Shown here one piece after another: positions 37,223 through 41,928 of a stretch of 43,782 nucleotides of DNA. Each line of letters opens with the position of its first letter. Position 1 is the first letter of the stretch. The translations under genes and the position numbers were made by a program. Below the pieces are notes generated by a model that was not told the DNA's origin, did not search any database, and saw only the letters and a program-made list of their open reading frames with translations. Source of the DNA: Archaeoglobaceae archaeon (GTDB lineage Archaea > Halobacteriota > Archaeoglobi > Archaeoglobales > Archaeoglobaceae); NCBI GenBank assembly GCA_015520485.1, contig WAPX01000007.1:1-43782 (forward strand), written 5' to 3'.

Positions 37223-37432
37223 ATGGATATGGGAGAGTTACCCATTGCGCCAATAGACAGAATTATTAGGAAAGCTGGAGCAGAAAGGGTTAGTGAGGAT
37301 GCAAGAGAAACAATGGCAGAAATCCTCGAGGAATGGGCAACCCAGGTTGCAAAGAGAGCAATAGAGGTTGCCAAACACGCTGGAAGAAAGACTGTTAAAG
37401 CTGAAGATATAAAACTTGCACTCAAGGCTTAA
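37223..37432 (+). CDS. Archaeal histone
   Basis: Archaeal histones wrap DNA as dimer stacks. The 69-residue protein is a bare histone fold: [20 protein letters not shown] (helix 1), the long helix [20 protein letters not shown] and [14 protein letters not shown] (loop 2 and helix 3, with the conserved RKTV-x2-DI). No tails are present. Starts at 37223 or 37229 (MGELPIAP) are both possible; GAGGTGGTGA fits either. It is single-copy in this window. Confidence 0.97.
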
Positions 37433-37446
37433 TTTTTTATTTTAGG
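37431..37446 (+). terminator. T-rich terminator after the histone gene
   Basis: The stop codon is followed at once by TTTTTTATTTTAG, the type of T tract used by archaeal RNA polymerase to stop. Confidence 0.45.
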
Positions 37447-37782
37447 TCTAAATATTATAATATGATAAAAAATTAAAAAAATATAATTAATAATTTTTAG
37501 AAAGTTTTCTTTCGCAAATGGATTAAATTACGTTTACCTCCAGCCAAAACAATTCAGTAACCTTGATGCACACCACTGTATCACTTTATCATCACTACAT
37601 TTTCAGAAACGCATTTATTGGTTTACTTAAGGAAAATAAGCAGAAGAAAACTGAATAAAATTAAAGGGGTCAGAATAAAGCTTTGTAAAGTTTAAAACTC
37701 GCGAATAAATTTTAATTAAGTATCGAAATAAAAAGAATGCATATATTTACTATAAAATAACACTTCATTCAGGTGATGCAAA
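37433..37782. other. 350-bp AT-rich gene-free region
   Basis: No open frame of note exists here. The first 70 bases are almost only A and T. The end holds the promoter of the secreted-protein gene: TATATTTA at 37742-37748 and GGTGAT at 37772-37777. The middle has no repeat or hairpin that I can support. The extent and richness in A/T are unusual for this gene-dense window and could host regulator or histone binding. Confidence 0.5.
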
Positions 37783-39201
37783 ATGAGAGGTGTGAAAGGT
37801 TTGGTTTGGCTGGTGCTTCTAACCCTTGTAGGCGCCAGCATTGGACTGACCATAGCAGCCCCACAGATGGGGACATTCCATCCTGCAGGAAACATGAAAC
37901 CAGTACACACAATACATAAAATGCAAAACGCGAGTAATAGACTGTGTAGCGGACCGTGTAATGCAACGAATGTGGCAAACACGACAAACATTGCGAATGT
38001 ACAGCCGCAGAGACATACTATACAGATGCAGAAGCACAGAAATATGAGTGCTAAGGGAGAAGTGTGGCACACTAATAGACAGAACAAGAGATTTGAAATC
38101 AAAATAAACGAGATCGAGATAAAGAAAAGAATAAAAAGAGAGGGTATTAATATTAGAATGTCCTACATGAAGGCAAAGGAGCGCTACTTTAGACTAAAAC
38201 AGGAATATAGATTACTGAAGAAAGAGGGTAAACTGGATTTCAAACACGAAAAGATTTTCTGCATGGCTGCAGGAGATCTTGTACTCAGGTGGTTCGACAG
38301 AGTTGAAGCTGCAATACTGAACTCCAACATCAACGAGAGTGTAAAGAACACCCTCATGACGAAGCTTGAACAGGAAAAGCTTGCTTTCGAGGAGAAGCTA
38401 AAGCTCGTAAACAGCACGGAAAACCCGCAGCAGTTCAGAGAGTACGTGAGACAGCTCAGGGAACAGTGGAGACAGGTCAGAATTACAGTTGATGAAGCAG
38501 TAATGGAAGTTGCAGTGGCAAAGCTCAACAGAACTGTAAATGTGGCTGAAAAGCTCGAGCTGAAGCTCTCAAGCATCGCATCAAACAGCACAGCTCTTGA
38601 AAGTTACTCCAGCAGGATTCAGATGGCAAAGAACTACATCGAGAGAGCAAAAGTTGATCTCAAGAACGGTAACGTAGCAGCTGCCAGAAAGTACATAGCC
38701 TACGCAATAAAATCGCTAAGAGAAGCATTCCTCGAAGCAAAACGGATAGTCAGAGCGCTCAACATGAGGGGTGGTGAGCTGATGGGCAGGATGGCCGGTA
38801 AAACTGGAATTACTGGAAACGGAACCATGAACGGTACTATGAACACAGCGAGGTTCGGACAGACAGGTCAGCTGAACGTAATGGGCAACGGGACTTTCAG
38901 CTTCAACGGAAGCGGAATCGTTGTGCTTCAGGCTGTAAACGCTACTGTGTCTTACACGGGCAACCTTTCAAACAGCACGGGGTTCGCGATTTCAGGTGGA
39001 GTACTCAGGGGTAGTGGAAGAGCAACGATTATCGGACAGAACGTGAGCGTTACAGTTACGGGAAGTAATGTGCACATGTTCGTTAAGGGGAAGGGTATAG
39101 CTCGCCTCAGTGGAACGGGAGTTTACTGGTACAACAACGTTACCCAGAGGCTCCAGCGTGAAACTCTGAACGGTAGCGTGAGCGTAACCCTCGGGAGGTG
39201 A
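37783..39201 (+). CDS. Secreted protein, helical stalk plus beta-rich C-terminal domain, function unknown
   Basis: I do not recognise this 472-residue protein. A signal peptide is clear (hydrophobic 8-24, probable cut after LTIAA). A Thr/Asn/Met-rich stretch (26-95) contains two Cys (CSGPC). Residues 95-345 are charged helices, likely a coiled coil, with a further Cys. Residues 365-472 are a Gly/Ser/Thr/Val beta-rich domain (VLRGSGRATIIGQNVSVTV, GKGIARLSGTGVYWY). Seventeen N-x-S/T sequons suggest heavy N-glycosylation. No membrane anchor is seen, so it may be free, or held by the lipoprotein encoded next. GGTGAT lies five bases before the ATG. It may be a cell-surface or filament-like structure protein; this is inference only. 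Confidence 0.75.
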   Translation: MRGVKGLVWLVLLTLVGASIGLTIAAPQMGTFHPAGNMKPVHTIHKMQNASNRLCSGPCNATNVANTTNIANVQPQRHTIQMQKHRNMSAKGEVWHTNRQNKRFEIKINEIEIKKRIKREGINIRMSYMKAKERYFRLKQEYRLLKKEGKLDFKHEKIFCMAAGDLVLRWFDRVEAAILNSNINESVKNTLMTKLEQEKLAFEEKLKLVNSTENPQQFREYVRQLREQWRQVRITVDEAVMEVAVAKLNRTVNVAEKLELKLSSIASNSTALESYSSRIQMAKNYIERAKVDLKNGNVAAARKYIAYAIKSLREAFLEAKRIVRALNMRGGELMGRMAGKTGITGNGTMNGTMNTARFGQTGQLNVMGNGTFSFNGSGIVVLQAVNATVSYTGNLSNSTGFAISGGVLRGSGRATIIGQNVSVTVTGSNVHMFVKGKGIARLSGTGVYWYNNVTQRLQRETLNGSVSVTLGR

Positions 39202-39206
39202 TGCAG

Positions 39207-39461
39207 GTGGGTCTGAAAACTAAGCTTGCACTGCTCCTAGCATTACTCGCAGTTGCCTCGCTGAGCATGGGATGCATGCAACAGAAAACAGCTCAAAATC
39301 TGAAGGCACCAAAGCCAGCAGCGACTTCAACGACTACATCCAAAACAACTTCAACAGCCAACGTTACACAGCTTGAAAAGGACATCAACGCAACGCTTAG
39401 CAACGTCAATCAGCTGCTGAATCAGCTCAATGACATAGAAAATATCAATTTTACAGTTTAA
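39207..39461 (+). CDS. Small lipoprotein, partner of the secreted protein
   Basis: The 84-residue product begins with a lipoprotein signal (KLALLLALLAVASLSMGC; lipobox LSMGC, Cys at about 23). A Pro/Ala/Thr/Ser-rich linker follows, then a short coiled coil (LEKDINATLSNVNQLLNQLN) with heptad Leu/Ile. Three N-x-S/T sequons are present. I chose GTG 39207 because GGGAGGTGAT (39193-39202) is an ideal site for it and the earlier GTG and ATG sit inside that site. It starts five bases after the secreted-protein gene, so both are surely co-expressed. It could anchor the larger protein to the membrane through helix pairing; function unknown. Confidence 0.75.
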   Translation: MGLKTKLALLLALLAVASLSMGCMQQKTAQNLKAPKPAATSTTTSKTTSTANVTQLEKDINATLSNVNQLLNQLNDIENINFTV

Positions 39462-40372: not shown

Positions 40373-41734
40373 ATGAAGACAGTTATTCTCGCCGGTGGCA
40401 GCGGTACAAGGCTCTGGCCTTTGAGCAGAGAGTACTACCCGAAACAGTTCATAAAGCTCGTTGACAGAAAAAAAACACTTTTTCAGCTAACCGTCGAAAG
40501 GGCGAGGCTGTTTTCTGCTCCATCCGACATATACATCGTAACCAACGAGCGACAGAAGTTTATGGCCATGGATCAAATCTCGGAGCTCGGCATTAAAATT
40601 CCAGAAAAAAACGTAATTGCCGAGCCAAGTCCCAGAAATACCCTTCCAGCGATATGCTACGCCGTCCTGCAAATAACTGAGAGTGAATCTACCAAGGTAG
40701 CCGTTCTGCCTTCAGACCACCTCGTTGAGGCAGGTAGTGCGTACAGAAAAGCGTTCAGGTGTGCATCTAGGCTTGCAGATGAATATCTTGTAACTTTCGG
40801 AATAAAGCCCACACGCCCGCATACAGGTTACGGGTACATAAAACCTGGAAATAAGATAGATGCGAGATGCGAAGCGTACAGGGTTGACAGGTTTGTTGAA
40901 AAGCCCGACGAGGAAAGGGCAAAAAAGTACATAGAGGAAGGATACATGTGGAACAGCGGAATGTTTCTCTTCTCCACTGACGAGTTCATAGAGGAGTGCG
41001 AGAAACACGCTCCGGACGTTATTGACGTTCTTCGAGAGGAGGGGCTGGAAGGTTATGGGGATGTAAGGGAGATTTCCATAGACCACGGGTTGATGGAGAA
41101 AACAGATAGAGCTGCTGTGGTAAGGCTCGACACACTCTGGAATGACGTTGGAAGCTTTGACGCACTTTACGAAGTTATGGACAAGGACTCAGCAGGAAAT
41201 GCGAAGAGTGGAGAGTGCATAACCGTCGATTCATCTAACAACCTCATATACAGCGAAAGGCTCGTTGCAGCAGTGGGTGTTGAAAACTCAATAATAGTTG
41301 ATACGAAGGATGCCCTTCTCATATGTTCCCGTGGCTTAACCCAGAAAGTAAAGGACGTCGTCAGAATACTGAAAGAGAAAGGGGATAGAAGGGCGGAGAT
41401 GCACCTCACCGTTTATCGACCATGGGGATCGCACACTCTGCTTGAGGAGAGTGACTTCTACAGGATTAAGAAGATGATCGTGCTTCCGGAAAGGGGACTT
41501 TCCATGAGGATGCACTACCACAGAAACGAACACTGGGTGGTTGTGAGAGGGATGGCAAAGGTGATCATGCAGGACAGGGAGTTTTACCTCAGAAGTGGAG
41601 AAAGCATGTTTGTGCCGGCTGGAACGAAGTATAAAATAGAAAATCCCGGAAAAATACCTCTGGATCTGCTTGAAGTGCAGATAGGAGAATACCTTGGTGA
41701 GGACGACATCGTTTACTTTGAGGAGCCGGATTAA
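40373..41734 (+). CDS. manC: Mannose-1-phosphate guanylyltransferase / mannose-6-phosphate isomerase
   Basis: The bifunctional enzyme makes GDP-mannose and interconverts mannose-6-P and fructose-6-P. Residues 1 to about 330 are the nucleotidyltransferase, with LAGGSGTRLWPLSREYYPKQF near the start and FVEKPDEERAKKYIEEG (the FVEKP active-site motif). The C-terminal 120 residues are a cupin isomerase domain beginning VYRPWGSH, with metal-binding His in MRMHYHRNEHW. The 453-residue length fits the fused class. GDP-mannose feeds N-glycans and mannosyl solutes, so it ties in with the sequon-rich secreted proteins encoded just upstream. Confidence 0.95.
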   Translation: MKTVILAGGSGTRLWPLSREYYPKQFIKLVDRKKTLFQLTVERARLFSAPSDIYIVTNERQKFMAMDQISELGIKIPEKNVIAEPSPRNTLPAICYAVLQITESESTKVAVLPSDHLVEAGSAYRKAFRCASRLADEYLVTFGIKPTRPHTGYGYIKPGNKIDARCEAYRVDRFVEKPDEERAKKYIEEGYMWNSGMFLFSTDEFIEECEKHAPDVIDVLREEGLEGYGDVREISIDHGLMEKTDRAAVVRLDTLWNDVGSFDALYEVMDKDSAGNAKSGECITVDSSNNLIYSERLVAAVGVENSIIVDTKDALLICSRGLTQKVKDVVRILKEKGDRRAEMHLTVYRPWGSHTLLEESDFYRIKKMIVLPERGLSMRMHYHRNEHWVVVRGMAKVIMQDREFYLRSGESMFVPAGTKYKIENPGKIPLDLLEVQIGEYLGEDDIVYFEEPD

Positions 41735-41854: not shown

Positions 41855-41928
41855 GGGCTCGTAGCTCAGCCAGGCAGAGCAGCGGCCTTTTAAGCCGCTG
41901 GTCGCGGGTTCAAATCCCGTCGAGCCCG
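41855..41928 (+). tRNA. tRNA-Lys (anticodon UUU)
   Basis: A complete 74-nt cloverleaf is present. The acceptor stem is GGGCTCG/CGAGCCC, the D stem GCTC/GAGC and the anticodon stem GCGGC/GCCGC with loop CTTTTAA. The T arm is GCGGG-TTCAAAT-CCCGT with one G-T pair, and the discriminator is G. The anticodon TTT reads Lys AAA/AAG. There is no intron. The 3' CCA is not encoded (CC then T), so the CCA enzyme adds it. TTTTAAA at 41821-41827 is the probable TATA box. Confidence 0.97.

What the first reader, a model, noticed from the sequence alone, without database searches (positions are those of the whole stretch)
37783..39461. Unrecognised two-gene surface system: sequon-rich stalk protein plus coiled-coil lipoprotein
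A signal-peptide protein of 472 residues combines a long charged helical region (95-345) with a Gly/Ser-rich beta domain (365-472) and 17 N-glycosylation sequons. It is followed five bases later by an 84-residue lipoprotein whose mature part is a linker plus heptad coiled coil. Neither matches a family I know. The tight coupling, shared sequon use and complementary helices suggest a lipoprotein-anchored glycosylated surface structure. The pair is preceded by a long AT-rich promoter region.
Basis: partly seen in the sequence, partly recalled or inferred. Interest (0 to 1): 0.7.

Follow-up and report, generated by a model that had tools for sequence, protein, structure and literature searches.

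The report
Conserved archaeal stalk–lipoprotein surface gene pair
Two neighbouring genes encode a secreted, probably sugar-coated rod protein and a tiny lipid-anchored partner that always travels with it across many archaea; the family is in none of the protein libraries searched here, and the partner probably ties the rod to the cell membrane.

Summary
A secreted 472-aa protein (disordered N-terminus, six-helix rod at 91-339, linker, Gly-rich beta domain at 362-470) is followed by an 84-aa lipoprotein. The guess of a coupled surface pair is borne out widely. In a 295-genome sample of the phylum, the helical domain is in 51 of 53 Archaeoglobales and all 41 genomes of a family identified by McrA as Methanosarcinaceae, plus scattered others. 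Of 102 full-length lipoprotein matches, 100 lie just downstream of a helical-domain gene; the other two are contig-end loci with the beta domain upstream. Among 101 distinct pairs, no stalk has a lipobox or convincing membrane anchor; nearly all small partners have a lipobox. Some pairs lack the beta domain but keep the lipoprotein, so the partner goes with the helices. N-glycosylation sequons are enriched 2.7-fold in both. No Pfam, NCBIfam, PHROGs or PADLOC family fits, and the confidently modelled beta domain (pLDDT 92) matches no solved fold at E<0.001. Most likely the lipoprotein's conserved C-terminal helix holds the secreted rod at the membrane under the S-layer. Pairing, sequons and architecture are shown; lipidation, glycosylation, binding and function are inferred.

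The parts
37433..37782 (+). AT-rich (75%) upstream region between the histone gene and the stalk gene; presumed to hold the promoter
   Evidence: no Rfam family here; promoter function not tested
37783..39201 (+). stalk gene: secreted 472-aa protein, 18 N-x-S/T sequons
37783..37860 (+). signal peptide region (about residues 1-26, Ala-rich cleavage site without a lipobox)
   Evidence: sequence; absence of lipobox in all 101 stalks
37861..38052 (+). low-complexity N-terminal segment (residues 27-90), predicted disordered, sequons at 49, 60, 66, 87
38053..38799 (+). helical (H) domain, residues 91-339, helices 91-147, 153-179, 185-211, 215-265, 270-294, 298-339; nearly invariant Lys157 and Trp229
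   Evidence: AlphaFold2 pLDDT mostly 83-95; profile A5; conservation
38800..38859 (+). linker, residues 340-359, Gly/Asn-rich with two sequons (346, 350)
38860..39195 (+). Gly-rich beta (B) domain, residues 360-471
   Evidence: AlphaFold2 pLDDT 91.7, pTM 0.85 as an isolated domain; profile A4
39194..39202 (+). GGAGGTGAT Shine-Dalgarno sequence overlapping the stalk stop codon (TGA 39199-39201)
   Evidence: junction sequence
39207..39461 (+). lipoprotein (L) gene, 84 aa from GTG (in-frame alternative starts 39198 and 39201); lipobox LSMGC, Cys23; linker; C-terminal motif LLxxLxxIENINFTV-COOH

Best explanation
This is a two-gene envelope module. The first gene makes a secreted rod protein (H domain plus, usually, a Gly-rich B domain). 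It is probably N-glycosylated by the AglB oligosaccharyltransferase and has no membrane anchor. The second makes a short lipoprotein, presumably lipidated at Cys23. It has a flexible linker of about 30 residues and a conserved amphipathic C-terminal helix ending in N-hydrophobic-x-F-x-hydrophobic-COOH. The most likely mechanism is that this C-terminal helix docks on the H domain and tethers the rod to the outer face of the membrane, leaving the B domain and glycans to project into or through the space under the S-layer. The role is most likely structural (spacer, stalk or adhesin), because conservation is limited to core hydrophobics, glycines and charged helix positions, with no recognisable catalytic set. 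Shown here: gene architecture, pairing, signals, sequon enrichment, predicted folds. Inferred: lipidation, glycosylation, docking, location, structural role.
For: Pairing: 100 of 102 full-length lipoprotein matches in 295 genomes lie within 2 kb downstream, same strand, of an H-domain match. The other two (G036:C195, G127:C5) are contig-end loci with the B domain directly upstream. Of 101 distinct pairs, 44 overlap and 92 are at most 63 bases apart. Reach: 51 of 53 Archaeoglobales and 41 of 41 Methanosarcinaceae in the sample have the H domain (counted; f5 identified by McrA). Cross-clade homology by HHalign: H E=1e-27, B E=3e-15, lipoprotein C-terminus without signal peptide E=5e-6. Anchor logic: none of 101 stalks has a lipobox, only two windows exceed 1.6 mean hydropathy beyond residue 60 (neither a clear transmembrane helix), while 99 of 101 partners show a GC lipobox. 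L goes with H: stalks without a B domain keep the lipoprotein (L024, L027, L028, L036, L040, L041, L119, L123), and its C-terminal helix is strongly amphipathic (mean moment 1.02 against 0.62 shuffled). Glycosylation: 1001 sequons in stalks against 370 shuffled and 491 mirror motifs; 178 against 65 and 54 in lipoproteins; AglB/STT3 in the same genome. Faster divergence than neighbours: histone 98%, stalk 49-54%, lipoprotein 41-62% identity within the genus.
Against: No contact between the two proteins has been shown and the tools could not co-fold them. The paralogue-swap test for co-evolution was equivocal (8 of 13 comparisons concordant; in one genus paralogous pairs have nearly identical lipoproteins but diverged stalks). 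Some H proteins have no adjacent lipoprotein: acidic-tailed paralogues, the 582-aa G028 protein, f11, and the split-gene f17/f26 loci. The lipoprotein profile was built from paired loci, so a much diverged solitary lipoprotein would be missed.
Confidence: 0.6

Rival explanations
1. Co-expressed but not complexed: the stalk is released or held in the S-layer by its glycans or B domain, and the lipoprotein is a chaperone or assembly factor that helps the stalk fold or pass through, not its permanent anchor.
For: Tight, often translationally coupled genes are typical of chaperone-client pairs as well. Stalk paralogues with nearly identical lipoproteins fit a common helper. H proteins without an adjacent lipoprotein in genomes that have a full pair elsewhere could share one.
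Against: A dedicated lipoprotein in nearly every pair, of fairly constant length (mature median 65 aa), with conservation concentrated in a short C-terminal motif, is simple for an anchor and small for a chaperone.
Confidence: 0.22
2. The stalk is an unrecognised S-layer subunit or S-layer pillar, a functional analogue of SlaB, with the lipoprotein as membrane foot.
For: Bicistronic stalk/lattice genes and glycosylated coiled-coil stalks are known in Sulfolobales (PMC5744192). No S-layer-domain protein was recognised in Archaeoglobus although its S-layer has been seen (PMC9012536). The H domain is near-universal in Archaeoglobales.
Against: Methanosarcinaceae carry the pair and also have a DUF1608 S-layer protein described as having its own C-terminal membrane helix (PMC12369344; PMC3361143). 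The stalk is small for a lattice protein and varies in B-domain content. No abundance data.
Confidence: 0.12
3. An extracytoplasmic binding or sensing pair (ligand, metal or surface sensing) rather than a structural one.
For: Helical secreted domains can bind ligands; weak non-significant similarity of the beta domain to cupin-like folds (TM up to 0.35).
Against: No conserved His/Cys/Asp ligand set; conserved positions are hydrophobic, Gly or helix-surface charges. No transporter or signal-transduction gene is next to it in the window among the neighbours identified.
Confidence: 0.05
4. A mobile or phage-derived pair, for example a spanin-like lysis pair (lipoprotein with coiled coil).
For: Weak PHROGs spanin match of the lipoprotein (E=8e-4), which reflects lipobox plus coil.
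Against: Found at one or a few loci per genome throughout two lineages; no hit in phage or viral collections, and none in the plasmid collection with the Methanosarcinaceae homologue; flanked by housekeeping genes.
Confidence: 0.01

Closest known systems
SlaB of Sulfolobales (stalk of the SlaA/SlaB S-layer) and tetrabrachion of Staphylothermus
   Same: Glycosylated secreted archaeal surface proteins combining helical stalk and beta domains; SlaA and SlaB come from a two-gene operon (PMC5744192).
   Different: SlaB is described as anchored by its own C-terminal transmembrane helix and has beta-sandwich domains plus a coiled coil. Here the beta domain is C-terminal, there is no transmembrane anchor, and a separate lipoprotein accompanies it. 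No SlaB or tetrabrachion family was reported in the Pfam or NCBIfam scans.
Methanosarcinales S-layer tile protein (DUF1608)
   Same: Secreted, glycosylated envelope protein in the same organisms (PMC12369344, PMC3361143).
   Different: No DUF1608 match among reported Pfam families for the window protein, nor among the 25 commonest families over 34 members; DUF1608 proteins are described with their own C-terminal membrane helix.
DUF5667 (PF18915)
   Same: Secreted, mostly helical proteins; encoded beside the pair in some Methanosarcinaceae.
   Different: Not homologous: HHalign probability below 1% against the H domain.
T4 gp5 C-terminal beta-helix (needle)
   Same: Gly-spaced short beta repeats give a weak profile hit (E=2e-4).
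   Different: No fold match in the PDB or viral libraries at E<0.001; composition-driven.
Archaeal lipobox proteins matured through AliA/AliB (Haloferax)
   Same: Lipobox signal peptide; [quoted passage not shown]
   Different: This one is only about 60 aa when mature and is found only with the stalk; lipidation not tested.

Membership tests
DUF5667 | Sequence match to PF18915 or profile homology | tested here: not met
   No PF18915 hit for the window stalk and none among the 25 commonest families of its relatives; HHalign Prob 0.8%
Cytochrome b562 (PF07361) | Score above Pfam cut-off (30 bits) over the four-helix bundle | tested here: not met
   18.2 bits, E=0.004, not among the 25 commonest families for the relatives
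SlaB-type S-layer stalk | C-terminal transmembrane anchor | tested here: not met
   No C-terminal membrane segment in 101 stalks
SlaB-type S-layer stalk | Oligomeric coiled-coil stalk | not testable with these tools
   Single-chain model shows a multi-helix bundle; oligomer not modelled
SlaB-type S-layer stalk | Two-gene operon with a surface partner | tested here: met
   Conserved gene pair, but the partner is a lipoprotein, not a lattice protein
DUF1608 S-layer tile protein | DUF1608 domain | tested here: not met
   Not reported by Pfam scan of the window protein; absent from the 25 commonest families over 34 members
T4 gp5-like beta-helix needle | Matching fold | tested here: not met
   Confident single-chain domain model, no PDB or BFVD match at E<0.001
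Archaeal lipoprotein | Signal peptide ending in a lipobox with Cys | tested here: met
   LSMGC in the window; G and C invariant in A6, 99 of 101 by pattern
Archaeal lipoprotein | Cys lipidated in vivo | not testable with these tools
   needs mass spectrometry
AglB-type N-glycoprotein | Sequon enrichment and oligosaccharyltransferase in the genome | tested here: met
AglB-type N-glycoprotein | Glycans on the asparagines | not testable with these tools
   needs glycopeptide mass spectrometry
Phage spanin pair | Inner-membrane i-spanin partner and lysis gene context | tested here: not met
   Housekeeping context, no viral hits; weak composition hit only

The most novel reading that the evidence does not exclude
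The pair is the missing pillar-and-foot of the Archaeoglobales cell envelope: a two-part, lipid-anchored S-layer support shared with Methanosarcinaceae, in which a dedicated small lipoprotein clamps an unanchored glycoprotein rod by a C-terminal peptide, with a B domain of unsolved fold as the S-layer or glycan-binding end.
Probability: 0.15. Interest if true: 0.85.

Novelty: new variant of a known kind. Interest (0 to 1): 0.62.

Why it matters
It is a near-core envelope module of two archaeal lineages (51 of 53 Archaeoglobales, 41 of 41 Methanosarcinaceae sampled) that none of the curated libraries searched here recognises. If the anchoring model is right it is a two-component way of fixing a surface glycoprotein to an archaeal membrane. 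It would also give Archaeoglobales, whose S-layer has been seen but in which one analysis recognised no S-layer-domain protein (PMC9012536), concrete envelope genes to test. Methanosarcina, whose members carry the pair, offers a route to a knockout.

Tried and rejected
Known-family searches with the window proteins and the alignments (Pfam, NCBIfam, PHROGs, PADLOC) gave only sub-threshold coiled-coil noise. PDB profile search gave composition hits only. Fold searches of the full model against the PDB and of the isolated beta domain against the PDB and viral libraries gave nothing at E<0.001. Phage and viral collections, and plasmids with the Methanosarcinaceae homologue, gave no relatives. The viral search with the full alignment could not run. 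DUF5667, a neighbour in some methanogens, was tested and rejected as a homologue. The paralogue-swap co-evolution test was equivocal and is not used as support. I tried to link the methanogen members to experimentally glycosylated M. mazei proteins (MM0716 and others, PMC4350412), but locus tags could not be mapped to sequences here, so no claim is made. Distribution outside the phylum could not be tested: only one genome-contig scan, with single-sequence patterns, was available.

Full report
Observation. The first (37783-39201) gives 472 aa and the second 84 aa from GTG 39207, or up to 87 aa from in-frame upstream starts. The GTG at 39207 is preceded by GGAGGTGAT, which contains the first gene's TGA stop, so translation of the two genes is probably coupled. 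The region upstream is 75% A+T against 55% for the window.

Structure. Modelled alone, the beta domain reached pLDDT 91.7 and pTM 0.85. It matched no PDB or viral model at E<0.001 (best TM about 0.35). The fold may therefore be new or only unrecognised; a solved structure is needed.

Relatives. The window's genome has one copy. Homologues occur in most Archaeoglobaceae and in both genomes sampled from a second family of the order. The same downstream lipoprotein follows nearly all of them. Profiles of the helical (A5), beta (A4) and lipoprotein (A6) parts were then run on 295 genomes of the phylum. The helical domain is in 102 genomes: 51 of 53 Archaeoglobales, 41 of 41 genomes of family f5, and a few in f7, f11, f17, f26 and f31. 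HHalign confirms that the parts are homologous across the two lineages: H E=1e-27, B E=3e-15, lipoprotein C-terminus (no signal peptide) E=5e-6.

Pairing. Of 102 full-length lipoprotein matches, 100 lie within 2 kb downstream of an H-domain match on the same strand. The two others lie at contig ends with a beta domain directly upstream. I assembled 101 distinct pairs: 44 overlap, 28 of them by the ATGA-type 4-base overlap, and 92 are at most 63 bases apart (starts are those of the longest ORF, so some overlaps may be smaller). One apparent exception, G041, turned out to have a diverged lipoprotein.

Architecture. There are four arrangements: H-B plus L (79 of 101 pairs carry a detectable B); H plus L without B, in one Archaeoglobaceae genus and in Methanosarcina-like genomes; separate neighbouring genes for B and H in f17 and f26, without an adjacent L; and H-B paralogues with acidic tails and no L, found where a complete pair exists elsewhere in the same genome, with G287 (an 80%-complete assembly) not resolved. 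Because L is kept when B is absent, L's partner is most likely H.

Signals. No stalk has a lipobox and none has a convincing second membrane segment; 99 of 101 partners have a GC lipobox. Sequons are enriched: 1001 in stalks against 370 shuffled and 491 mirror motifs, 178 in lipoproteins against 65 and 54. AglB is present in the genome. The lipoprotein's C-terminal segment is strongly amphipathic (1.02 against 0.62 shuffled) and ends in a conserved motif. Within the genus the neighbouring histone is 98% identical, while the stalk (49-54%) and lipoprotein (41-62%) diverge as surface proteins often do.

Interpretation. The simplest reading is a secreted glycoprotein rod without its own anchor, tethered by a dedicated lipoprotein through its C-terminal helix. 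Conserved residues are structural (Trp229 96%, Lys157 81%, Leu, Ala, Gly), so an enzyme is unlikely. What remains inferred: lipidation, glycosylation, physical contact, exposure and role. A paralogue-swap test did not settle contact (8 of 13).

Known systems. SlaB and tetrabrachion work in a similar way as helical glycoprotein stalks (PMC5744192), but SlaB carries its own transmembrane anchor and neither family was reported for these proteins. DUF1608 S-layer proteins, DUF5667, cytochrome b562 and the T4 gp5 needle were tested or checked and not met. I therefore file it as an unrecognised family pair that works like an anchored archaeal surface stalk, not as a member of a known one. [quoted passage not shown]

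Noticed in passing
L118 / L193 (G061), L194 (G110), L124 / L195 (G140): Helical and beta domains are separate adjacent secreted genes in families f17 and f26 (several McrA-family genes present), without an adjacent lipoprotein.
   Followed up: partly
L034, L037, L039, L042: Paralogous H-B proteins with acidic C-terminal tails and no adjacent lipoprotein.
   Followed up: partly
L011 / L200 (G028): A 582-aa member with a second, partial copy of the helical domain and no downstream lipoprotein.
   Followed up: partly
L108, L181 (G076), L107, L189 (G068): Paralogous pairs with nearly identical lipoproteins but stalks 40-50% diverged by score, suggesting one lipoprotein type serves several stalks or gene conversion.
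   Followed up: partly
L196, L197 (G052, G090): Stand-alone secreted beta domain of 148 aa with conserved neighbours of 346-355 aa and 182 aa; function unknown.
   Followed up: no
L122:2584-3552, L198:3387-4352: DUF5667 proteins encoded beside the pair in some Methanosarcinaceae.
   Followed up: yes
L120, L121 (f11): Helical-domain-only secreted protein without a lipoprotein, in both loci upstream of a related 338-384 aa gene that looks like a tRNA methyltransferase (name from recall, not tested).
   Followed up: no
window 40373-41734: Mannose-1-phosphate guanylyltransferase / mannose-6-phosphate isomerase fusion gene close to the pair; a possible sugar-nucleotide supplier for glycosylation.
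   Followed up: no
window 37223-37432: Archaeal histone gene directly upstream, 98% identical in two relatives with the same gene order.
   Followed up: yes
window 41855-41928: tRNA gene (Rfam RF00005, 71 bits).
   Followed up: no
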